Positions 1 to 13,872 of a stretch of 30,678 nt of DNA are shown in pieces. Every line of letters starts with the position of its first letter. Within the stretch, counting starts at the first letter, position 1. A program made the translations under genes and the position numbers. Source of the stretch: a virus; the IMG/VR virus record IMGVR_UViG_3300046517_001446, positions 1 through 30,678 of that record, one strand, 5' to 3'. The notes under the pieces are model-generated. The model made no database searches and was not told where the DNA came from. It saw only the letters and a program-made list of their open reading frames with translations.

Positions 1-765
1 CTGACGTTTACCGACGTTGTTCTAGGTTCAACCGGCACGTCCTTTGCCCATGTTCGCGCAACCAACGCAGCTACGGTTGTTATTTCCGGCAGCCTGACGG
101 TTTCCGGTAATTCCACCAATGGATTTTCCGCAAGCAGCGCCAGCCAGATTATTTTCAGTGGCGGCACGATCACGATCAGCGGCAATCCAACGATCGGCAC
201 TTTGCTGAATGCAATCGACAACAGCACGGTCGTTGTGGCGAATGCCACGACTTGGGTCGGCACTCTTACGGGCGCACGGTATTCGCTCGCCCTTGGCGGG
301 ATGATCGATACAGAGCAAAATGATACGCCATTGCCCGGCTCGTTGCTTGGTACGGTTGGGCCGACCTCACAATACTACAGAAATGCCGGCAAGGTATGTG
401 TGGGTGGGGCCGCCCTATGCCCGGTTGTGACGGCCCCGACCGGACTTGGAGGCGCCGGAACTGCTGCAATGCTTGCCGGTTCCGGTGATAAGTCCGGGGT
501 TGTCCTCCTCACGGCTCAGGCGGGAGCAGCAGCCCTTGGCGTGGTCCATGTCAGCCTAGCTAGCAATCTGAGCGGCTCGACTGGCGGTTCTGCTTTTTGC
601 ATCGCCGGCCTGGCTGATTCCAGTACGGCCTGGAATTTAGCTGCAGGCGTGCATGCCTTCTTTACGGCCAGCACGACTGCGCCTGACATCAGTATCTCAT
701 GGTTCAATAATGGCGTAGCGCTCGGGGCCGGAAATACCTACGCCATTACATATATTTGTCTATGA
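1..765 (+). CDS. Tail fibre/spike-like protein, 3' part
   Basis: The frame is open from the first base of the window, so the start lies outside; 254 codons are visible before a TGA at 763. The visible N-terminal part is a run of Val/Thr/Ser/Gly-rich short strands (SGSLTVSGNSTN, SGGTITISGNP) as in beta-helical phage fibres. The end is a compact domain with paired cysteines finishing in YAITYICL. The next gene ends in a similar small domain (FKWTYWCPGT), so both probably share a C-terminal trimerisation or receptor-binding module. The stop overlaps an ATG at 762, but the downstream gene more likely starts at 786. Role as a virion fibre or spike is inferred from composition and position beside the tailspike and lysis genes; no catalytic motif is visible. 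Confidence 0.6.
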   Translation: MTFTDVVLGSTGTSFAHVRATNAATVVISGSLTVSGNSTNGFSASSASQIIFSGGTITISGNPTIGTLLNAIDNSTVVVANATTWVGTLTGARYSLALGGMIDTEQNDTPLPGSLLGTVGPTSQYYRNAGKVCVGGAALCPVVTAPTGLGGAGTAAMLAGSGDKSGVVLLTAQAGAAALGVVHVSLASNLSGSTGGSAFCIAGLADSSTAWNLAAGVHAFFTASTTAPDISISWFNNGVALGAGNTYAITYICL

Positions 766-785
766 GAAACATCATGAGGGATACT

Positions 786-2951
786 ATGAAACGCATTCTC
801 GCTGTTTTAGCCACGCTCTGCCTTACATTCCTGACCATTGCGCCAGTAGCAATGTCACAGGCCCCATTTGTCGGGCTTGTTTTCCCGCCTCAGACCGTAA
901 TGGGGAATCCATCATCACAATCCGGCTTTGGCCAGGCCATTCCGTTTGCAAGGCTGACTGCCACTCTATTCGGACTGACGATACGCGGCAATGCCGACTA
1001 CACGATTCTGTCGACCGACTATACGATCGTCACCAATGCGGCATTCACTGCACCGCGTACATGGACATTGCCGGCTGCATCGACCATCACAAGCGGTAAG
1101 TCGATCTGCGTTTACGATGCGTTTGGTGGCGTGAATGCTACCAACACGCTTACGGTTGTGCGTACCGGAGCCGATACGATCAGTGGCGGCACCAGCATTG
1201 TTGCGGACAGTCCGTTCTATATCGCGTGCTTCACGTCGGACGGATCCTCCAAGTTCACGGCCGAGAAGTCGCCGCTCAATCCGACTTTCACGCAGACCGG
1301 CACCGGCGCGGTCCAGCAAACGCTTGATGCATGGGCCAAGCAGCAGCACGTTCATCTGAGTGACTTTGGTGGCGTGGCGGATGGAACTGCCATCTCTACC
1401 GGTACTGTCAGTATCACTACCGGAACGGGCGCTCTGACGGTCACCGCGGCAACATTTACCTCTGCCGATGTTGGCAAGATCATCCGGGTTGACGGGGCTG
1501 CCGCAGCTAGTTCCCAGTATTTTGGAACCATCACCGTCTTCACTAGCGGCACGCAGGTCACTGTCAGTCCGAACGCCGGCACCACGCTGACCACCGCCGC
1601 GCTTGGTGCGAATGCACAAGTCGTCTACGGCACAGACAATGCGACTGCGCTGCAGAACTGGATCAATCGATGCCAGAGTTCTGCTGAAACCTGCATGTTA
1701 AATCAGGGAGCTTATGCGTTCGGGTCGACGCTGAACGTTACCAATGCGTTGACGGTTTGGGGACATGGTAGGCAGTCCAGTATTCTCTATCCGCTCAATC
1801 CTTCCATCACTGAAATTTCCATCAACACCAACAATCCGGTGCGGCTGTCCTCATTCGCCATGTGGGGCTCGACCATTGCCGGCATCTCAAACACGTTTCT
1901 CAGCATCACCGGGTCGACGCAGAATTATGGCAGCGTTCTTGACGATCTGTATTGGATTGGCGGCAATACTCAGGTTGCCTGTACCAATTGTCAGAATCTT
2001 CGGATCGACAAGGCTACAATGATCAATGCCATCAACAATGGTATTGTTCTCGGCAACGCCAACTCACCGCTTTCCGGTCAATATTTCATTTCCAATTCCG
2101 AGTTCGCACTTTTCCAGACTGCCTCGGTTCGCCAGTCGTGTATCACGTTGCAAAGCGGTGGCAATCTTGTCATCGCGAGCAGCATGGTGCATTTCTGCAA
2201 TGTAGGACTTCACGTTCAGCAGAACAACGGAACATTGCTGGGCGACATCTTCATTACTGGAAGTAGCTTTGAGCAGAGCGACAATGCCGGCATTATCTTT
2301 GACAAAGGAACTTCTACGACTGTTCAGACAATACAAATCGTTGGCAATGACTTTGGTGGCGGCACACCAAGCGGTATTGTTGTCAATGGGGCTACGGCAT
2401 TCCTTCAGGATATGTCGATTCAGGGGAATACGTTCTATCCGAATAATTCGTCGGCAATAATACTTCCCAATGGTGCATCGCTTGGCGATGGTGCGATCAC
2501 CATCACTGGCAACGTCTTTGCAACTGGCGGCGGTACACCGACTGGCATCAACGTCACTGGCAACGCCGTCAAAGGCATGGCGGCTGGCAATACGTTTCGT
2601 GGGCTGACTACCAATGTGGCGAACGCCTCGCCGTTCTTCCTGGCGGAGAACTTGGTCAATGGCCATACCAGCTATGTCGGTGTTGCGCCAACCCTGACGG
2701 CCGGGTGTAACGGAGCTGGGCAGGTCACTACTGGTGCGACGGATCGATCTGGAACTATCACGGGACAGACAACGGCACATACAACCTGCACCCTGACCTT
2801 CGCGCAGGCATACGCCGTTGCACCGAGCTGCGTTGCGATGGGGATCAGCTCGCCATTGACGACCACTGCTGTCTCAACCACGACAACTCTCGTAGTCAAC
2901 TTCGCCAATACAGCAAACTTCAAGTGGACCTATTGGTGTCCTGGCACATGA
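786..2951 (+). CDS. Beta-helix tailspike-like protein with N-terminal signal-like segment
   Basis: 721 residues. The start at 786 is preferred because GAGGG lies six bases upstream; in-frame ATGs at 762 and 774 are possible. Residues 1-25 look like a signal peptide (MKRILAVLATLCLTF then APVAMSQ), which is odd for a virion protein made in the cytoplasm. Near residue 195 is HLSDFGGVADG, the typical opening of the pectate-lyase-3-like right-handed beta-helix of tailspikes, followed by repeated short Asn/Gly/Ile-rich coils to about residue 620. The last 90 residues form a Cys-containing domain ending FKWTYWCPGT that parallels the end of the preceding gene. Expected role is host polysaccharide binding or degradation; no catalytic residues could be assigned. 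Confidence 0.7.
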   Translation: MKRILAVLATLCLTFLTIAPVAMSQAPFVGLVFPPQTVMGNPSSQSGFGQAIPFARLTATLFGLTIRGNADYTILSTDYTIVTNAAFTAPRTWTLPAASTITSGKSICVYDAFGGVNATNTLTVVRTGADTISGGTSIVADSPFYIACFTSDGSSKFTAEKSPLNPTFTQTGTGAVQQTLDAWAKQQHVHLSDFGGVADGTAISTGTVSITTGTGALTVTAATFTSADVGKIIRVDGAAAASSQYFGTITVFTSGTQVTVSPNAGTTLTTAALGANAQVVYGTDNATALQNWINRCQSSAETCMLNQGAYAFGSTLNVTNALTVWGHGRQSSILYPLNPSITEISINTNNPVRLSSFAMWGSTIAGISNTFLSITGSTQNYGSVLDDLYWIGGNTQVACTNCQNLRIDKATMINAINNGIVLGNANSPLSGQYFISNSEFALFQTASVRQSCITLQSGGNLVIASSMVHFCNVGLHVQQNNGTLLGDIFITGSSFEQSDNAGIIFDKGTSTTVQTIQIVGNDFGGGTPSGIVVNGATAFLQDMSIQGNTFYPNNSSAIILPNGASLGDGAITITGNVFATGGGTPTGINVTGNAVKGMAAGNTFRGLTTNVANASPFFLAENLVNGHTSYVGVAPTLTAGCNGAGQVTTGATDRSGTITGQTTAHTTCTLTFAQAYAVAPSCVAMGISSPLTTTAVSTTTTLVVNFANTANFKWTYWCPGT

Positions 2952-3099: not shown

Positions 3100-3609
3100 A
3101 TGGAAGCAAACTGGCCGGTCTGCCTGAAAGCCATCCTCGAACAAGAAGGTGGCAACGATGACGACCCGGACGATCCGGGCGGGCGTACCTCACGTGGCAT
3201 CATTCAGCGCGAATACAATGCGTACCGGCAACTTCTGAGCCTGCCAATGCAAGATGTCTGGAAGGCATCTGATAACGAGGTAGCCGACATTTACCACAAG
3301 AGCTATTGGCTGCCGTACTGTCCGCAGATGCCGTCCGGCGTCGATCTGGTGTACTTCGATGAGGCCGTAAACGCCGGTCCACACGAGGCCACGCTGTTAC
3401 TCCAGCGAGCCCTGGGCGTGAATGCGGACGGCCATATCGGTATCGTCACCATGGCGGCGCTCAATCGTGCCGATCCGAAATGGGTTATCAAGAACTTTTC
3501 GGACAGGCGCACAGCCTATTACCGCAGCCTGAAACTGTTCTGGAAGTACGGCAAGGGCTGGCTGCATCGCACTGTGACAATTGAGCACCAAGCTACAGCA
3601 ATCGCTTGA
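3100..3609 (+). CDS. Endolysin, GH108-type muramidase with peptidoglycan-binding tail
   Basis: 169 residues, normal length for the GH108 lysozyme family. The N-terminal motif EQEGGNDDDPDDPGG carries the catalytic Glu (E of EGG) followed by the family's DPGG and TSRGI segment. The middle AVNAGPHEA and QRALGVNADGHIG match the second GH108 half and the PG_binding_3 helix, and FSDRRTAYYRSL...GKGWLHR is the conserved end. It hydrolyses the glycan strand of peptidoglycan during lysis. There is no signal peptide or membrane anchor, so it should need the holin encoded just downstream. It is followed by two small membrane protein genes, forming a lysis cassette. Confidence 0.88.
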   Translation: MEANWPVCLKAILEQEGGNDDDPDDPGGRTSRGIIQREYNAYRQLLSLPMQDVWKASDNEVADIYHKSYWLPYCPQMPSGVDLVYFDEAVNAGPHEATLLLQRALGVNADGHIGIVTMAALNRADPKWVIKNFSDRRTAYYRSLKLFWKYGKGWLHRTVTIEHQATAIA

Positions 3610-6653: not shown

Positions 6654-7766
6654 TCAAACGTCTTTCTCTTCTGCTTGAGCTAACGCTTTGATGAACTCTG
6701 CCGCGACTTGCGGGACGATCGCGTTGCCGTAGGCGCGCAAGCGTCCCACTCGGCCGGGTACCCCATGAGCCAGCGGGAATGTGCCGGGTTCAACTGGCCG
6801 CGCTTTTCCGTCTGTGCAGGGGAGCCAGTCGATTGCGGACCACGAAGGGTGAGGGTCGCCTGATCGTTCAATGATACTGCGTGCTTCCCTTCCTCGTAGC
6901 GCTCGCCCTGGCCGCTCCGAAAGTCCTTCGCCTGTGGCGTGATCCAGCTCGCTAGGTAAACCGCTTTGCTCAACGCCACGTAGCCGTCGCGGCTGTTGTG
7001 CTGCTGCCTCTCTTCCGCCCGCGGCGTCGGCCAACTCGCAAGCCGTGCCGCGCCTGGCAATTTCAGGGCAATCTTGTTGTGGTCCCCGCCGACGTAACAG
7101 TGGGTACTCCCCGTCGCGTCGTTGCTTACAGGCGTCGGCCAACTCGCTAGTTGCGCTGTCTGTGCTGTCGTTAGCCCAAAGCCGTTCCCGTTGTTTCGCA
7201 ATTTGGCGAACTTCTGGCGTCTGGCTTCCGTCACCTCCGGGTCGGCCTCGTATTGGTTTGCTGTCGGAGTTAGCCACGAACCACAATCGCTGTCTGATGT
7301 GCGGGGCGCCGACGCCGCAAGCTGGAAGTACGGCCGTCCCGCAGGCGTAGCCTTCCTGTTCCAGGTCAGAGAAAACAGCGTCGACCCAGCCCCATCCAAC
7401 TGCCGCCTCAACTTGCTCTCCAAAGACGACTGGAGGGCGGCACTCGGCGATGAGAGGTAGCCACGAAGGCCACAGATGGCGTTCGTCATCGGCCGCCTGG
7501 CCTTTGCCGGCGGCGCTGAACGGCTGGCAGGGGCAGGAGCCTGTCCAAACATGTCGATCGTCGTCCCATCCGGCAAGTCTGAGGGCGAGTGACCATCCGC
7601 CGATGCCAGCGAAGAAGTGGCACTGGGTGTAGCCAGCGAGTTCGTCGGCTCGGACATTGACGATCGATCGCTCGTCAACGTCGCCTGGTGCGATGTGCCC
7701 GGCTGCGATGAGGTTGCGGAGCCATTGTGCGGCATAGGGGTCTATCTCGTTGTAGTAGGCGGTCAC
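6654..7766 (-). CDS. dcm: DNA cytosine-5 methyltransferase
   Basis: 370 residues from GTG 7766, with AAAGG upstream. Residues 1-50 are the phage-type opening ([17 protein letters not shown] and GYTQC), then motif [11 protein letters not shown], motif [13 protein letters not shown] with the catalytic Cys, and motif VIII-like [14 protein letters not shown]. Motif VI, normally ENV, reads EQV here. A low-complexity Arg-rich middle (about 180-300) stands where the target recognition domain belongs, and motifs IX-X ([19 protein letters not shown]) close the fold. The enzyme transfers methyl from AdoMet to C5 of cytosine, probably protecting phage DNA from host restriction. A second long frame runs inside it on the same strand. 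Next gene upstream is an adenine/N4-cytosine methylase. Confidence 0.88.
6680..7735 (-). CDS. Long same-strand ORF fully inside dcm (dual-coding candidate)
   Basis: 351 codons in another frame of the same strand, covering nearly all of dcm. It starts [14 protein letters not shown] and contains [39 protein letters not shown], three copies of a SW(P/I/L)TP-type motif, and ends [17 protein letters not shown] followed by a Ser/Arg tail. I recall proteins of this type as annotated hypothetical proteins in many proteobacterial prophages, and its end resembles the closing segment of some methylases. Each ASWPTP in this frame is the same DNA as an ELADA in the Dcm frame. No clear RBS precedes the ATG. 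Conservation in this frame may be imposed by the Dcm frame, so expression is uncertain. Confidence 0.4.
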
Positions 7767-7816
7767 TACGGGGCCTTTGATTTCAGGAGTCTTTCTCTTG
7801 AGCGCAAGAGAAGTAA

Positions 7817-8506
7817 CTAAGGCGAGAACATGTCTGGTGGTTTGGGCTGCGGCTTTGGACGCTCAATAAACATGTCCGGCGTCCGCACCGCCTCATCGAT
7901 CCGCTTGCAGGCGATATCGAAGTATTTCTGTTCGATCTCGATGCCGTAAAACTTTCGCCCCATTTTCACTGCTGCTACGCCTGTCGTTCCAGAGCCCATG
8001 AATGGGTCACAGATTAGATTGCATTCACTTGGAAGCTGGCCGATTGTCCATTTCATAAGCTCTATAGGCTTTTGGGTTGTGTGCTCGACGCCATCAACAG
8101 CTAGGGCGGCGCGGTTAAGTGTAAAAATCCGTAGCGCGCCATCAATGTTTGTCCAAGCAAGTTCCCCATCAGATTGGTTGATGCGCTGCCCCTTATCCCA
8201 TACAAGCCACTTGCTTTTGGGCGGGAGGCAGTTGGCAAAATAATTGCCGCCCCACACGACAACATAAGGCGCCGTATAGAGAAATAAATCGAAAACGCCG
8301 TCTCTCGGCTTCATCTTCTCCCAAGGGGCAATTTTGATCTCGCGGCGACCTCCGTGGGCTCCATCGCTCTTTTTTTGGTCCTTCAACTCAATCCCATATG
8401 GCGGATCGGTCACAATCGCATCGACCTTGCCGAGCGTCGGCAATATCTCCCGGCAGTCGCCAAGGTAGAGCGTGACGCCTTCGGCTATGGTCTCGATTTT
8501 GGCCAT
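7817..8506 (-). CDS. DNA N6-adenine/N4-cytosine methyltransferase, beta class
   Basis: 229 residues. The catalytic motif IV DPPY is at about residue 34 (AIVTDPPYGIEL) and the AdoMet-binding motif I follows late (DPFMGSGTTGVAA, about 165-177), an order typical of beta-class amino-methylases of the N6_N4_Mtase family. HTTQKPIELM precedes it, as usual. The C-terminus is a Pro/Lys-rich tail (ERPKPQPKPPDMFSP). It would methylate adenine N6 or cytosine N4 at a specific site. No restriction enzyme gene is next to it, so it is an orphan methylase, likely anti-restriction or regulatory. Start at ATG 8506; RBS weak. Confidence 0.88.
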   Translation of the reverse strand: MAKIETIAEGVTLYLGDCREILPTLGKVDAIVTDPPYGIELKDQKKSDGAHGGRREIKIAPWEKMKPRDGVFDLFLYTAPYVVVWGGNYFANCLPPKSKWLVWDKGQRINQSDGELAWTNIDGALRIFTLNRAALAVDGVEHTTQKPIELMKWTIGQLPSECNLICDPFMGSGTTGVAAVKMGRKFYGIEIEQKYFDIACKRIDEAVRTPDMFIERPKPQPKPPDMFSP

Positions 8507-8768: not shown

Positions 8769-9071
8769 TTAAGGCGCCGACCATTCGCAGGTCAGCCCCT
8801 CAAGCGGTCTTCTGACAATCACGTTCTCTGCGCCCGCAAGGTTCGCGGCTACAAACTCAGCGATCTTTTCCATGGTCGGGGGAGAGAGGATGTCGTTGAG
8901 CATCTTGTGGTCTAGCCTTTTGCAAACTGATTGCAGTTTCCGTTGTAGTTCTTCCACGCATGGCCCCTCTTTGACGTAGGCCCAGACCTCATAGGAATGG
9001 CCGTGTATATCGCCGTGCTGTGGCAGCTTATGCCCAGCGCAGAATTGAGCTCTCGCGCCGACGAGGATCAT
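8769..9071 (-). CDS. queD: QueD-like 6-carboxytetrahydropterin synthase homologue
   Basis: 100 residues starting at ATG 9071, which overlaps the queE stop as ATGA; a longer upstream frame only runs through queE. The PTPS-fold zinc site is present: H14 in FCAGHKL and H23/H25 in DIHGHSYEVW; RLDHKMLND near residue 70 carries the conserved Asp-His pair and PTMEKIAEF follows. Normal role is conversion of dihydroneopterin triphosphate to 6-carboxytetrahydropterin, the QueE substrate. Oddities: the catalytic Cys normally just before LHGH is replaced (QHGDIHGH), a Cys appears instead at position 11, and the late Glu (VKET in E. coli) reads VRRP. It is also about 20 residues short. It may be divergent or altered in activity. 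Confidence 0.75.
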   Translation of the reverse strand: MILVGARAQFCAGHKLPQHGDIHGHSYEVWAYVKEGPCVEELQRKLQSVCKRLDHKMLNDILSPPTMEKIAEFVAANLAGAENVIVRRPLEGLTCEWSAP

Positions 9072-9685
9072 GCAATTCCCCATCGCTTGTGGTTCTGCTG
9101 GGAAAGTCGCCATTGTGGGCGGCGGCAGCATAAGGCCATAGCGCTGCTGAGGTTGCGGCGGCGCCTCCACCAGCCCCATTCCCATTTCGGCTGAACGTAG
9201 AAGCGATGAAACGGGAGCGCTTCAAAGTCTGCCGGGTTCAAATCAGTCTGCGGCATGACCAGTTTAAGTTCGTCTCCGTCCGCCACCTGAAGCGTTCGCG
9301 TCTTTGGGCTGACCGTGATCCAGTCTGGGTTCGCTTTTAGCGGAACGGTTCCATTGGTCTCGATGGCCGTAAAGAACGATCGATTGCGAAATTCATAGAG
9401 AAGATCCTTATCAAGCTGCAGAGCTGGCTCTCCGCCAGTGAAGACCACAAACCTACTGCGTTGGGATGGGAATAGTTGCTCGGCCTTGGCGGCAATCTCG
9501 CGCGCCGTCAGACGCTTGCCACCGATAAAGTCTGTATCGCAGAAGCGACAGGCGGCGGTCGATCGATCGGCTTCTCTTCCAGACCAGAGATTGCAGCCAG
9601 CAAAGCGCACGAAAACCGCAGGGCGGCCTGCATGGGCGCCTTCGCCCTGTAGAGTATAGAAGATCTCTTTTACGGCGTAATTCAT
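9068..9685 (-). CDS. queE: 7-carboxy-7-deazaguanine synthase
   Basis: 205 residues from ATG 9685, which overlaps the upstream stop as ATGA. It opens YAVKEIFYTLQGEGAHAGRP, the QueE signature, and has the atypical radical-SAM cluster C31-x14-C46-x2-C49 that marks QueE rather than the usual CX3CX2C. VFTGGEPALQ and FFTAIETNGT are further QueE motifs. The C-terminal PQWRLSQQNHKRWGI matches the family end, although the WEWGWWRRRR stretch just before it is unusual. It turns 6-carboxytetrahydropterin into 7-carboxy-7-deazaguanine (CDG), the base or precursor for 7-deazaguanine modification. Flanked by a DpdA-like gene and queD with overlapping stop/start codons, so the three are one translational unit. 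Confidence 0.9.
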   Translation of the reverse strand: MNYAVKEIFYTLQGEGAHAGRPAVFVRFAGCNLWSGREADRSTAACRFCDTDFIGGKRLTAREIAAKAEQLFPSQRSRFVVFTGGEPALQLDKDLLYEFRNRSFFTAIETNGTVPLKANPDWITVSPKTRTLQVADGDELKLVMPQTDLNPADFEALPFHRFYVQPKWEWGWWRRRRNLSSAMALCCRRPQWRLSQQNHKRWGIA

Positions 9686-10362
9686 ATCATTTCCAGTTGC
9701 TTGGCCGATACGCGCCACGTTGCCTGACATTGAACGGCGTCCCATCGGTCGGCCATCTTGCGCGGAGTGTTCTGAGGGCGGTTGTGGTTCCTGGCGATGT
9801 CGGTGCTGTCAACGGATGCGAATGGCCAGCGCTCGCCGCTGCATTGCATCCCGCGAAGCATGTGGACCCATGGCAGCATGTGATGCTGTTTCGCGACGGC
9901 GTCCCAGGCATCGTCCATGCGCCGGCACCAGTTCTCCGACATCACCTCGGCATAGACAGATGTCGACCCGACGCAGACCTTCGACCACTCGCCGGATAGC
10001 CTCACAAGGCGGTCTATGGGCTCGTCCATGTGCCAAACGGGGGCACCCCGCAGGCCAAATGGCCATTGCCGAATTAACGCGTCCTGTGCCTCCGCGCCCG
10101 CGTCTATGTGGTCTGGAATGACTGCCCAGGTCGTCGGGTAGGCAAGCCATTCCTCCGCCCATTCGTAGTATCCAGGCCAGTTCGTCGGCTTTCCCGCCTT
10201 CCATAGGGAGAATGCGCCATTGTCCAGCATCACGGACTGTCCAATGAGGTGGCAGCGCCGAACATCTTCTGGTGCGGCGAATGACACGCAGAAAGAGCGA
10301 CCAGCGAGTTCATAGAGTGCAGTCATCGGCGTGATTGGGGTTCCGTGGTAGTGGATCGTCAT
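9682..10362 (-). CDS. DpdA-like DNA guanine transglycosylase (tentative)
   Basis: 226 residues. It starts MTIHYHGTPITPMTALYELA and has VMLDNGAFSLWKAG at about 44-57, which resembles the DSGGFQ active-site loop of tRNA-guanine transglycosylases with D47 as the counterpart. A second Asp lies in ASVDSTDIARNHN (D185), near where the nucleophilic Asp would be. PWVHMLRGM and WAVIPDHIDAGA are strand ends of a TIM-barrel-like fold. Phage DpdA enzymes exchange guanine in DNA for a 7-deazaguanine, and this gene is stop/start coupled to queE and queD, which supports the call. It is short compared with bacterial TGT (about 375), as some phage DpdA forms are. No RBS is obvious. Confidence 0.65.
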   Translation of the reverse strand: MTIHYHGTPITPMTALYELAGRSFCVSFAAPEDVRRCHLIGQSVMLDNGAFSLWKAGKPTNWPGYYEWAEEWLAYPTTWAVIPDHIDAGAEAQDALIRQWPFGLRGAPVWHMDEPIDRLVRLSGEWSKVCVGSTSVYAEVMSENWCRRMDDAWDAVAKQHHMLPWVHMLRGMQCSGERWPFASVDSTDIARNHNRPQNTPRKMADRWDAVQCQATWRVSAKQLEMI

Positions 10363-10999: not shown

Positions 11000-11494
11000 T
11001 TACTTGATCCTGATTGAGAGCGTTCGACTTCCATTGCTGAGCGTGGCTCCCGGCACGTCTCCAACCTCGAGCATTTGTTTTATTGCAACCTTGTCCGGTT
11101 CGCGTTTGAACCGGCATGCTGCATCTGGTAGCTGGTTTTCATCGAGAATGATTACAGACGGCGGCACGGTTCTCATTGAGTACGTTGCCTCCGGCAGCAT
11201 CATCTTCTCAACGTCCGCCGCGTACAGCAGCTTCATTGCCAATGCGCGCATGGCCTCCTGCCGTTTGTCGAAACGATACTGCCGCAACTTCAAGTCCTTG
11301 ATGTTCTGGTTCAGGGCATCGGAGTTGCATGCCGCTTCCTGCCGGGCACGTTCGAGCTTGCGCAGAAGCTCTGTCAGGTCCGTTTCGCTCTGCAATGTCA
11401 GCAGCCATGACTCCTCGTCGTCGAGCAGCTCCGGGAAGCTCAGCTTCAGAGCTTCGATGGTCTGCAGGATGGCGTTGGCGTCGAGCTTCAGCAT
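11000..11494 (-). CDS. Gp157-family protein (Siphovirus Gp157)
   Basis: 164 residues. The helical N-terminal half (SFPELLDDEESWLLTLQSET) and the C-terminal half with VPPSVIILDENQLP, DKVAIKQMLEVGDVPGATL match the Gp157 family, often found with phage SSB and recombinase genes. Biochemical role is not firmly known. The start ATG 11494 lies 24 bases after the last of the array of 30-nt-loop hairpins (11518-11573), so that stem-loop would sit in its 5' untranslated RNA. It is nine bases from the SSB-like gene. Confidence 0.8.
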   Translation of the reverse strand: MLKLDANAILQTIEALKLSFPELLDDEESWLLTLQSETDLTELLRKLERARQEAACNSDALNQNIKDLKLRQYRFDKRQEAMRALAMKLLYAADVEKMMLPEATYSMRTVPPSVIILDENQLPDAACRFKREPDKVAIKQMLEVGDVPGATLSNGSRTLSIRIK

Positions 11495-11628
11495 CGGCTT
11501 GCCTGTGCGTGAGAGTTGGGCGGGGAAGGCATGATATCTGTGGGTGATAGGCAGGCGCTGGCCTTCCCCGCCCGGCGCAAGTGCAACACTTCATTTGGTA
11601 TCATTCTGGGACTGGCGCTTGCGTGTAA

Positions 11629-11787
11629 GTGGCTGACGACATCAACGGCCTGGGTTTCATATTGATCCTGGTCGTCAACCTTGCTCTCACGAGCAAATTG
11701 GTTGGGGGCGGCATGGCCCGTGTGGGTGACATGTTTAAGGTGGCCGCCCCCATCGCGGGCATGGTGGCAGTGGTGTTCAACAAATGA
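11629..11787 (+). CDS. Doubtful small hydrophobic ORF on the opposite strand of the array
   Basis: 52 codons from GTG 11629, which directly follows an in-frame TAA. The product has a hydrophobic stretch (GLGFILILVVNLALTSK) and a second one (AAPIAGMVAVVFNK), so it reads like a small membrane protein, but there is no RBS and it runs against the operon. It overlaps four array hairpins. Recorded because the hydrophobic pattern is better than chance shadows usually show; I would not rely on it. Confidence 0.2.
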   Translation: MADDINGLGFILILVVNLALTSKLVGGGMARVGDMFKVAAPIAGMVAVVFNK

Positions 11788-11971
11788 ATGGCCCGCGAAT
11801 TGGGATTGCCGGACAGGCGCAGCCTGGCCATGGTCCTTTCGGACAACTGACACCTGGCGCCCGCCCGGCAAATGAAAGGGTGACGGCGGATTCAAGCGCT
11901 CCGTTGGTTCCATGGTACAAATGGAATCCGCCGTCAGCGAGGACAAGAACCCAATGGTGCTCATCCGACAT
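11777..11971 (-). CDS. Doubtful 64-codon ORF running through the hairpin array
   Basis: Starts at ATG 11971 with GAGG five bases upstream, inside the loop of the hairpin at 11937-11982, and runs through three further array hairpins. It reads MSDEHHWVLVLADGGFHLY and ends in a Cys/Pro-rich part. The RBS and opening look real, the second half does not. If translated, ribosomes would have to unfold the stems. It could also be a chance frame in GC-rich DNA. Confidence 0.25.
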   Translation of the reverse strand: MSDEHHWVLVLADGGFHLYHGTNGALESAVTLSFAGRAPGVSCPKGPWPGCACPAIPIRGPFIC

Positions 11972-11996
11972 CTGGTCCTCGCATTACTGTGTTGCA

Positions 11997-12932
11997 TCAC
12001 ACTTGTTCCCGGGCCGGCGGCAGGGTCATTCGCTTGCTTGAATTCAAACATTCCGTGGACCCTGCCGCCGGCTTCTGCGGAGACACATCTTGTCCAGTGG
12101 ACACAAACTGCCTAGTCTCCACATTCCAACACTTCCACAAATCATTGATCACCGTGGCCATCATGATCCGCAACGCATCGGACTTCGCATGCCCATCCGT
12201 CCAATCTGGGTGCACGGTGTCGTCATGCTCACGCCGACGTACATAGACCGCGCCGTAAGGTCCCAGCGGCTCGCCATGCTTGGTGCCGGACTTTGCCTTT
12301 GACTTGATCTGTGCCCGCAACAGAGAATCGGCAATCGTGAAGATGCGTGCGTAGCGCCGCCCATCGAACGGATGAGCCATCCATTCTTCTTTGGTGAGCG
12401 TCCGTGGCCGCCACGTCGTGCGCTTCCACGTGGAACCCGCGTGCCCATCATAGGGCGCGAAGTACAGTCGCGACCGCAGATGCCCCGCACTCGGAAAGTT
12501 GCCGTTCTCAGGCGGCAGGTTCGGGTCGGCGGTTTTCAATCCGCTTTCCGCAACGATGATGGCCAGTCCTTTTGCGCCGAGCCCGCGCACGCTCTCGATC
12601 CATGGATAGACTGGCAATTGCTTGGCTAGCGCCTCCATCTCCTTCTCACGGGCATTCTTTGCATTGCGCGGGAGTTCTATTGCCGCATCACTCACCGCGA
12701 CTTCCGCAATGATGTCAGGATCGCCTTGCCCTTCGCGGGCCAGCTTGATGATGCGAGTGACCTCGTCATTGCATTTCTTGCGCTCGGCTTCCGGCATGTC
12801 GAATGCCCAGTCCGTTGCATTCCGCCGTATGAAGCTGCGGAGACGGTTTTCCAACGTGAATTCGGTGGACATGTTGTAGATGCAGCGGCGCTGCATGGCA
12901 CGGATCTGGTCAACCATTTCAGTGATTTGCAT
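11997..12932 (-). CDS. IS110-type transposase-like HhH protein of prophages
   Basis: 311 residues. The core LPVYPWIESVRGLGAKGLAI then IVAESG resembles the helix-hairpin-helix segment of the Transposase_20 (IS116/IS110/IS902) domain, followed by an APYDGH segment, GRRYARIFTIADSLL and a conserved end (HAKSDALRIMMATVINDLWK). I know related proteins from Rhizobiales and Acetobacteraceae prophages, usually called hypothetical or transposase. The RuvC-like DEDD catalytic half of IS110 enzymes is not seen, so it is not a complete transposase. The last 40 residues are encoded by DNA of two array hairpins (12013-12123) and look non-conserved. Its start overlaps the preceding gene by 14 bases. Nucleic-acid binding is likely; recombination is speculative. 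Confidence 0.6.
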   Translation of the reverse strand: MQITEMVDQIRAMQRRCIYNMSTEFTLENRLRSFIRRNATDWAFDMPEAERKKCNDEVTRIIKLAREGQGDPDIIAEVAVSDAAIELPRNAKNAREKEMEALAKQLPVYPWIESVRGLGAKGLAIIVAESGLKTADPNLPPENGNFPSAGHLRSRLYFAPYDGHAGSTWKRTTWRPRTLTKEEWMAHPFDGRRYARIFTIADSLLRAQIKSKAKSGTKHGEPLGPYGAVYVRRREHDDTVHPDWTDGHAKSDALRIMMATVINDLWKCWNVETRQFVSTGQDVSPQKPAAGSTECLNSSKRMTLPPAREQV

Positions 12933-13743
12933 TGAGTTCCCCCTCGATCAGCCGTGGCAGATTGTCGGTGTACATCTTGATGCCCTTCGCGATCATCTTT
13001 GGAGCCAATTCGCTGGTCCTGTTCTGGAAACCAATTAAATCCTTCTCGGTGATCACGTTGCGAACAATCTCATCGTTGTTGACCACTACACAGTGCGCGT
13101 CGATCATACGCATCAGAAGGAAATCCATTGTCTGGTGAAGCCCATGACGGAGGCCGCTGGCTGCACCGGCAGCGGCTTCCGCCATCTCGGCACGCAGGCT
13201 GCCCATCGTCAGATTGCCGATTGCCCGGCCCCTGATTTTGTAAAGATCGAAGGCGGATGTTCTCGCGACGGCAAGCTCAGCCTTCTTCTGGCTGGCGGTT
13301 GGCATCTTCGGCGGCTTCCCCGCGGAAGTGTGGCGAGCGGGCGGGGCCAGCAGACGGTTTGGTTTCAGCAATGGAATGGGCCTCGCCTCGCTCGCCGTCG
13401 CAGGAGAGGCCAAAGCGTCCGTGGGTTTCATTCGGGGGTTGGGCCTCGCCGTACTGGTAGTCGCCGCAGGCGGGGGAGCAGCAAGTGCCTGGGGCTCATC
13501 AACCATCTGGCTCCCCACACCTACGGTTTTGTTGTCCATGTCGGCCAGCACCGAGCGCCCGCAAGCGAGCAGGCAGCCGAGCAGCAGATCATCGTCCTTG
13601 CGAATCTCCTGCATGGCGGCGCGCATGGCCTTCATCAGGTCACGATCGTGCTTCTGCAGATAGAAGACCAGCTTGCCGAACACGCGTATCTCGCGCGGGT
13701 AGCCACCGACCTTGTCGAACGCTGCTTTCATCGATGCGACCAT
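12919..13743 (-). CDS. Unknown two-domain helical protein of the hairpin-flanked module
   Basis: 274 residues, ATG 13743 with CGGAGA seven bases upstream. The N-terminal 75 residues are helical (MKAAFDKVGGYPREIRVFGK, DLMKAMRAAMQEIRKDDDL). Residues about 80-150 are a Pro/Ala-rich linker with repeated phrases (ARPNPRMKPTDAL, ARPIPLLKPNRLL). The C-terminal 120 residues are helical again (NLTMGSLRAEMAEAAAGAAS, MIAKGIKMYTDNLPRL). No domain is recognised. The gene overlaps the IS110-like gene and follows two 30-nt-loop hairpins by 25 bases, so the pair lies between hairpin groups on both sides. A partner role to the IS110-like protein is inference from this arrangement. Confidence 0.6.
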   Translation of the reverse strand: MVASMKAAFDKVGGYPREIRVFGKLVFYLQKHDRDLMKAMRAAMQEIRKDDDLLLGCLLACGRSVLADMDNKTVGVGSQMVDEPQALAAPPPAATTSTARPNPRMKPTDALASPATASEARPIPLLKPNRLLAPPARHTSAGKPPKMPTASQKKAELAVARTSAFDLYKIRGRAIGNLTMGSLRAEMAEAAAGAASGLRHGLHQTMDFLLMRMIDAHCVVVNNDEIVRNVITEKDLIGFQNRTSELAPKMIAKGIKMYTDNLPRLIEGELNANH

Positions 13744-13767
13744 TTGGAAATCTCCGTTGGAATGAGT

Positions 13768-13872
13768 GGCGGCGGATTCACGTGGCTCCAGGGTTTCAGC
13801 AAGGTGATGGAATCCGCCGCCGTTGCGATGACAAAGACGAGTTAGCGTTCATGATCGAAGTGGTCATCGCAA
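13768..13872 (-). repeat. Two adjacent stem-loops of the 30-nt-loop family
   Basis: Copy one has 12-bp perfect arms at 13768-13779 and 13810-13821; copy two has 10-bp perfect arms at 13823-13832 and 13863-13872. They are one base apart and both loops are exactly 30 nt with the same signature as the copies at 11518-12123. The first copy has arms close to those of the hairpin at 11881-11936 (shared GGCGGATTC), the only clear arm similarity in the family. They form the leader upstream of the 274-residue gene, 25 bases before its start, in the gap after the gene ending at 13940. Confidence 0.85.

What the first reader, a model, noticed from the sequence alone, without database searches (positions are those of the whole stretch)
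11518..13872. A family of twelve stem-loops with a fixed 30-nt loop, covarying arms and a conserved loop signature
Seen directly: twelve inverted repeats, ten at 11518-12123 and two at 13768-13872. Eight have perfect arms of 8-15 bp, three have one non-Watson-Crick pair, one (11807-11870) has two. In eleven the loop is exactly 30 nt. Arm sequences differ almost completely, so base pairing, not sequence, is what is kept. Aligning the eleven loops in minus orientation: A at loop position 2, T at 12, C at 18 and T at 30 in 11/11; C at 1 and G at 13 in 10/11; the closing pair is C-G in all. The twelfth loop is 36 nt because a small stem with a GAAA tetraloop is inserted between positions 13 and 18, as if a sub-helix closed by G13-C18 can grow. 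Four of five non-canonical pairs are G-U on the minus strand, the transcribed strand, which favours an RNA element. I know no published RNA or DNA repeat with this form.
Basis: seen in the sequence. Interest (0 to 1): 0.95.

Follow-up and report, generated by a model that had tools for sequence, protein, structure and literature searches.

The report
Phage TIGR-TasA stem-loop guide-RNA array
The stem-loops are a tandem array of guide RNAs of the recently described TIGR-Tas kind, encoded by a phage next to the protein that should carry them; relatives show that the guide parts are swapped in place while the stems stay the same, a clue to how such arrays evolve.

Summary
Chance is excluded: 14 units with 30-nt loops against 0.03 per shuffle. 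The arms covary. It is a TIGR stem-loop array (Faure et al. 2025) next to its Nop-domain protein TasA (window 11997-12932, minus strand). That protein matches NCBIfam TIGR_Tas_endo (E 3e-13), the TasR sequence as a family profile, and TasH and TasR by predicted fold (Z 14.1 and 12.8). Each unit reads CCA-N9-UG-N4-CCA-N9-UG inside a variable stem; the odd 36-nt loop keeps 9+9 spacers.

Relatives (nine records besides the window) add four things I did not find in the TIGR text I could read. (1) Orthologous units keep arms (95%) but not spacers (25%, chance), so spacers are replaced in place. (2) The last bases of spacers A and B covary (74/97 pairable, 41.5 expected). (3) Units sit in frame inside tasA or its neighbour. 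(4) An upstream gene is conserved in the relatives; the window's P0001 may be its counterpart.

Most likely function: RNA-guided, nuclease-free binding of rival DNA. No target is established; one candidate lies in phage DNA polymerase motif A.

The parts
11997..12932 (-). tasA-like gene (P0002, 311 aa): Nop-domain protein without a detected nuclease domain
   Evidence: NCBIfam NF052498 TIGR_Tas_endo E=3.3e-13, 50 bits, below its curated cut-off of 100; phrog_4285 transposase 1.7e-8; family profile hits TasR 9MTY E=2.6e-7; AF2 pLDDT 76, pTM 0.71; fold Z 14.1 to TasH, 12.8 to TasR
12919..13743 (-). upstream gene P0001 (274 aa), with its own ribosome-binding site, overlapping the start of tasA; holds three guide units in frame
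   Evidence: ORF; SD before ATG; codon-position GC .65/.35/.81 and .57/.42/.70 on the flanks but flat .67/.66/.68 across the units; only weak similarity to the upstream gene of relatives
13823..13872 (-). guide unit 1 (10-bp stem); spacer A CTTCGATCA, spacer B ACTCGTCTT; candidate target in phage DNA polymerase motif A
13768..13821 (-). guide unit 2 (12-bp stem)
12076..12123 (-). guide unit 6, weakest signature (box C reads CTA), overlaps the 3' tail of the tasA ORF
12013..12072 (-). guide unit 7 (15-bp stem), overlaps the 3' tail of the tasA ORF
   Evidence: fold z -8.1
11937..11982 (-). guide unit 8
11881..11936 (-). guide unit 9 (13-bp stem)
   Evidence: fold z -4.1
11806..11871 (-). guide unit 10: 36-nt loop; spacer A GGTGTCAGT, box D TG, hairpin GTCC-GAAA-GGAC, box C CCA, spacer B TGGCCAGGC
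   Evidence: fold z -5.3
11753..11798 (-). guide unit 11
11703..11752 (-). guide unit 12
11631..11680 (-). guide unit 13
11576..11623 (-). guide unit 14 (one C-A mismatch)
11518..11573 (-). guide unit 15 (13-bp stem), last before the Gp157-like gene

Best explanation
This is a phage-borne TIGR-Tas system of the stem-loop-array type. The minus-strand operon makes TasA (a Nop-domain RNA-binding protein with no detected nuclease) and a string of 15 stem-loop guide RNAs. Shown from sequence: each unit carries box C (CCA), a 9-nt spacer A, box D (UG), a small loop, a second box C, a 9-nt spacer B and a second box D, closed by a variable stem; TasA belongs to the Tas/Nop family by sequence and fold; the spacers are the hypervariable part. 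Inferred from the published system: the transcript is cut between stems, a TasA dimer grips the two C/D box pairs, and spacers A and B pair with opposite strands of an adjacent roughly 18-bp DNA site. Inferred for this phage: with no nuclease, TasA acts by sitting on and bending the target, blocking transcription or replication of rival phages or other mobile elements. The covariation of the last bases of the two spacers fits the two guide halves meeting at their 3' ends, where those bases probably pair with each other.
For: Protein: NF052498 TIGR_Tas_endo hits P0002 at 3.3e-13 and all nine members of alignment A8 (best 2.6e-35); profile to TasR 9MTY E=2.6e-7, or 3.2e-13 with alignment A6, which also hits TasH at 0.012 (9MTY identified); fold Z 14.1 TasH, 12.8 TasR, 10.7-11.3 IS110 recombinases, 7-8 Nop5/Prp31. 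Array: matches the published stem-loop array plan. Synteny: arrays of the same plan flank homologous genes in RHph_X2_25, in five other related contigs or prophages (including Rhizobium esperanzae and Metarhizobium album), and in L015, L029 and L030. Box D is the same letter in edge and loop within a clade: TG/TG in the window, L029 and L030; CG/CG in the X2_25 group, and P0002's best relative is L030, E=4e-30. Spacers hypervariable: L010 against L011, nine orthologous units, arms 95%, boxes 92%, spacers 31% and 19%; 62 pairs with matching arms have 26% spacer identity. A9-B9 covariation z 6.1, the only loop pair to stand out.
Against: No target is established: spacer matches to sibling phages do not exceed controls with A and B swapped between units. 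P0002 scores 50 bits against the 100-bit curated cut-off of NF052498, so it is a divergent member. Transcription, processing, RNA binding and DNA binding are untested here. Faure et al. saw no phage protection with TasR in E. coli, so an anti-phage role is inference.
Confidence: 0.88

Rival explanations
1. Same TIGR-TasA machinery, but its job is regulation of the phage's own lysogeny or of host genes rather than conflict with rival elements.
For: TasA lacks a detected nuclease; in RHph_X2_25 the locus lies between a C repressor and an XRE regulator in a temperate phage. Faure et al. list gene regulation among possible roles.
Against: Spacers of orthologous units are randomised between close relatives, which fits changing targets better than fixed regulatory sites; no 18/18 self match in the phage sequence held (partial for some phages).
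Confidence: 0.3
2. The RNA guides TasA to RNA rather than DNA, as box C/D sRNPs do.
For: The fold is shared with Nop5/Prp31 (Z 7-8), and the C/D box layout is snoRNA-like.
Against: Closest proteins are TasH and TasR, which act on DNA. TasR does not cut RNA. No fibrillarin or L7Ae partner was seen in the ORFs scanned.
Confidence: 0.07
3. A domesticated IS110-type bridge-RNA recombination or integrase-aiding system.
For: The RNA-binding domain is shared with IS621 and ISCro4 (Z 10.7-11.3) and the loop plan is bridge-RNA-like. Faure et al. suggest a possible aid to integrases.
Against: P0002 aligns only from about residue 112 of TasR and 123 of IS621, so no N-terminal catalytic domain is present; many single-loop units instead of one two-loop bridge RNA.
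Confidence: 0.05
4. Not a guide array: structural DNA hairpins (recombination or packaging sites) that happen to lie beside tasA.
For: Perfect palindromes in phage DNA; four G-U pairs are the only direct strand bias inside the window.
Against: Fixed C/D boxes on one strand only, same strand as tasA; 1 against 14 signature hits on the other strand; box letters follow the protein clade; same architecture beside homologous genes in other phages.
Confidence: 0.02

Closest known systems
TIGR stem-loop array with TasA (Faure et al. 2025, PMC12045711; Peromyscus gut contig with 13 stem-loops)
   Different: Here the loop is held at 30 nt (9+4+9 plus boxes) in all but one unit; units also sit in frame inside the upstream gene and, in relatives, inside tasA; spacer ends covary; an upstream gene is conserved in the relatives. 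Supplementary figures of the paper were not available to me, so some of this may be shown there.
TIGR dual-repeat arrays with TasR or TasH
   Same: Tandem spacers, CCA and UG boxes, boxes matching between edge and loop, A-rich tetraloop
   Different: No conserved edge repeat: the arms differ from unit to unit; no RuvC or HNH domain found
IS110 family bridge RNA (IS621)
   Same: Shared RNA-binding domain; internal loop with left and right guides under a hairpin
   Different: No catalytic N-terminal domain; many one-loop units instead of one two-loop RNA
Archaeal box C/D sRNPs (Nop5)
   Same: Nop fold, C/D boxes around two guides
   Different: No K-turn/L7Ae or fibrillarin partner seen; much weaker fold match (Z 7-8)
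VIPR (PMC13142463)
   Same: Phage-encoded RNA-guided system with a repeat RNA
   Different: Vipr is a RAMP protein and its RNA has GGY/NN repeats; neither feature is seen here

Membership tests
TIGR-TasA, stem-loop type | Protein with a Nop / IS110-type RNA-binding domain | tested here: met
TIGR-TasA, stem-loop type | No nuclease domain (TasA rather than TasR/TasH) | tested here: met
   Fold alignment starts after the nuclease part of TasR/TasH (model residue 7 = TasR 112; model 1 = TasH 64); no RuvC/HNH family hit
TIGR-TasA, stem-loop type | Array next to the gene, with variable but palindromic arms | tested here: met
   same in relatives
[quoted passage not shown]
   CCA-N9-UG-N4-C(C)A-N9-UG in the window, CCA-N9-CG-N4-CCA-N9-CG in the X2_25 group
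TIGR-TasA, stem-loop type | Box letters agree between edge and loop positions | tested here: met
   pos 12 and 30: T/T in 27 of 28 window/L029/L030 units, C/C in 56 of 70 of the others
TIGR-TasA, stem-loop type | Array transcribed and processed into single stem-loops bound by Tas | not testable with these tools
   needs pull-down and small-RNA sequencing
TIGR-TasA, stem-loop type | Spacers direct binding to opposite DNA strands | not testable with these tools
   only indirect: A9-B9 covariation
NCBIfam NF052498 TIGR_Tas_endo (endonuclease equivalog) | Score above curated cut-off (100 bits) | tested here: not met
   P0002 50.1 bits, E 3.3e-13: family relative, not filed as the endonuclease
TIGR dual-repeat array | Conserved 8-12-nt edge repeat alternating with loop repeat | tested here: not met
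   arms differ among units
IS110 transposase with bridge RNA | N-terminal DEDD catalytic domain plus C-terminal domain | tested here: not met
   model aligns to IS621 only from about residue 123 on

The most novel reading that the evidence does not exclude
In this phage branch of TIGR-TasA the guide arrays evolve by exchanging both 9-nt spacers inside a fixed stem, not by adding units; the two spacers are physically coupled by pairing of their last bases; and some guide units are dual-use, serving also as in-frame coding sequence of tasA or of its partner gene, which the fixed 30-nt (10-codon) loop permits.
Probability: 0.55. Interest if true: 0.75.

Novelty: new member of a known kind. Interest (0 to 1): 0.55.

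Why it matters
How TIGR arrays gain spacers and what TasA targets are stated open questions (PMC12045711). The relatives found here, some of them temperate phages of culturable rhizobia, give orthologous units whose stems are nearly identical and whose spacers are fully replaced. That makes the origin of spacers testable by resequencing and by spacer matching. The A9-B9 covariation is a concrete, testable detail of how the two guide halves meet.

Tried and rejected
Rfam: no hit in the window. tRNA: none. Pfam on P0002 and its family: only DUF6902 at E 0.001 and Transposase_20 at 0.017, both weak. PADLOC: no hit. First AF2 model of P0002 with 7 sequences was poor (pLDDT 52) and was not used; adding L029 and L030 raised it to 76. 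Spacer targets in sibling phages: no excess over swapped A/B controls (15 hits of at least 16/18 against 10-25; 3 against 2-18). Pattern scan of Rhizobiaceae genomes with one spacer pair gave hits of a low-complexity GTCGTC-type string, not informative. Two of three spacer pairs scanned in IMG/VR gave only scattered hits. The A9-B9 signal was first read as both spacers reading one shared target base; the G-U pairs (25 of 98 units) and the unpaired centre of the one candidate target make RNA-RNA pairing somewhat more likely, but neither is excluded. The first-reader idea of an unpublished RNA family was rejected.

Full report
OBSERVATION. The stem-loops are real. A scan of the minus strand finds every one listed, plus three more with the full loop signature at 13340-13387, 13406-13447 and 13473-13516. 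That makes 15 units. In the 2.6-kb region 14 units have a 30-nt loop, at least 5/6 signature letters and a stem score of at least 6; 300 dinucleotide shuffles give 0.03 on average and never more than 1; the plus strand of the whole window gives 1. On the ungapped 50-column alignment of 14 units the arms pair in 90% of cells, 9 of 10 positions change on both sides, and the covariation score is 0.659 against 0.184 shuffled and at most 0.168 slid.

THE PROTEIN NEXT TO IT. ORF 11997-12932 (-), P0002, ends inside the array. It matches NCBIfam NF052498 'TIGR-Tas system RNA-guided endonuclease' at E=3.3e-13 (50 bits, cut-off 100), and so do all nine members of its alignment, best 2.6e-35. It matches phrog_4285 'transposase' at 1.7e-8. 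A profile of its family hits the solved TasR (9MTY) at 2.6e-7, or 3.2e-13 with a different set of relatives; one search confirms that 9MTY is the TasR RNP of the TIGR paper. The AlphaFold2 model (pLDDT 76, pTM 0.71) matches TasH with Z 14.1, TasR with 12.8, IS110 recombinases with 10.7-11.3 and Nop5/Prp31 with 7-8; the best unrelated helical match is 8.3. Only the Nop part aligns and no nuclease family was found, so it is TasA-like.

WHAT THE UNITS ARE. Faure et al. [quoted passage not shown] Here each unit reads C-CA, N9, UG, N4, C-(C/A/T)-A, N9, U-G, with the first and last letters in the stem. G13-C18 closes the inner loop (13/14). The 36-nt loop of 11806-11871 fits the same reading with 9-nt spacers and an inner GAAA hairpin.

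RELATIVES. Homologous tasA genes with arrays of the same 30-nt-loop units were found in RHph_X2_25 (Sinorhizobium phage; C repressor and integrase annotated), IMG/VR contigs L008, L009 (= Rhizobium esperanzae SEMIA 4089), L010, L011, L012 (= Metarhizobium album NS-104), L015, L029 and L030. Arthrobacter phage Talia1610 has a homolog with less regular stem-loops. Box D is CG/CG in the X2_25 group and TG/TG in the window, L029 and L030; of the relatives compared, the one closest to P0002 is that of L030 (29% identity, E 4e-30). So the box letters follow the protein, as expected if the protein reads them.

SPACERS ARE REPLACED IN PLACE. L010 and L011 share flanking genes at about 90% nucleotide identity. 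Their nine orthologous units have arms 171/180, boxes 66/72, inner tetraloop 24/36, spacer A 25/81 and spacer B 15/81; chance is 25%. Over all phages, 62 unit pairs with at least 17/20 identical arm bases have spacer identity 0.259 against 0.270 for unrelated pairs. No adaptation gene was identified. This differs from CRISPR growth by unit insertion and bears on the open question of spacer origin.

THE TWO SPACERS ARE COUPLED. Among all loop position pairs in 97 units only positions 11 and 29, the last bases of spacers A and B, covary: 49 Watson-Crick (23.4 expected) and 74 counting G-U (41.5 expected), z 6.1 for Watson-Crick; next best 2.4. The X2_25 group plus L015 and the window alone also show it, p<1e-4 and p=0.017. 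Either the two bases pair with each other in the RNP, or both read one central target base pair. Both readings put the 3' ends of the spacers together, as the published 8-nt 3' overhang geometry requires by my derivation.

UNITS INSIDE GENES. In the window three units lie in P0001, whose codon-position GC is gene-like on both sides and flat across the units, and two overlap the tasA tail. In L003, L008, L009, L010 and L011 one to three units lie inside tasA, downstream of a canonical ribosome-binding site and start codon. L008 and L009 have the same in-gene unit with replaced spacers and an intact frame. The relatives share a gene upstream of tasA (alignment A5); P0001 sits in the same place but is only weakly similar.

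TARGETS. Not established. Real spacer pairs do no better than swapped pairs against 391 kb of sibling phage and 928 kb of other viral DNA. One lead: unit 13823-13872 matches, at 16/16 outer spacer bases with two free central bases, the codons for DSSQIEA in motif A of family-A DNA polymerase (motif assignment from my own knowledge) in 27 IMG/VR phage contigs. It is one of three pairs scanned, the site is highly conserved and copy-rich in that collection, and no second unit hits those contigs, so chance is not excluded.

MECHANISM. Shown: array, boxes, stems, Tas-family protein, hypervariable spacers, coupling of spacer ends. Inferred from the published system: processing between stems, TasA dimer on the C/D boxes, spacers on opposite DNA strands. 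Inferred here: without a nuclease the complex blocks or bends target DNA, most likely of competing mobile elements; regulation of lysogeny or host genes is the main rival.

NOVELTY. The thing is a member of a known kind, published in 2025. In-place spacer exchange, spacer-end covariation, in-frame units and the upstream gene conserved in the relatives were not in the parts of the main text I read; the supplement was not available, so I do not claim priority for them.

Noticed in passing
window 13823-13872 (guide unit 1): Spacer pair matches CTTCGATC-TG-AGACGAGT, codons of DSSQIEA (motif A of family-A DNA polymerase), in 27 IMG/VR phage contigs; a candidate target, chance not excluded.
   Followed up: partly
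window 8769-10362 (-): QueD-like, QueE-like and queuine tRNA-ribosyltransferase genes in a row: a queuosine-type pathway, perhaps for modified phage DNA.
   Followed up: no
window 6680-8506 (-): Two adjacent DNA methyltransferase genes.
   Followed up: no
window 756-2951 (+): 731-aa ORF with a pectin-lyase-like stretch, perhaps a tail spike.
   Followed up: no
window 11000-11494 (-): Gp157 / Mu Gam-like gene directly after the array.
   Followed up: no
L003 3543-4142, L008 3862-4455, L009 3999-4598, L010 3860-4462, L011 3242-3847, L012 3936-4538, L015 4248-4790: Conserved gene of about 180-200 aa upstream of tasA, no convincing PHROG match; possible second component.
   Followed up: partly
L010 unit with loop at 3501 and L008 3596-3612: Spacers of an L010 unit match 17/18 to the first stem of the array in the related phage L008, as if one array targeted another; within the range of swapped controls.
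   Followed up: partly
L002 (Arthrobacter phage Talia1610) 4288-4800: Stem-loops with loops of 31-37 nt and CCC motifs upstream of a TasA homolog; a more distant, looser version of the array.
   Followed up: partly
L032 (G165:C12): Distant TasA homolog (E 9e-28) with stem-loops of 34-38-nt loops nearby.
   Followed up: no
upstream of tasA start in L003, L008-L012: Shared leader with AGAGGAGA and CACC-rich linkers before tasA and before the upstream gene.
   Followed up: no
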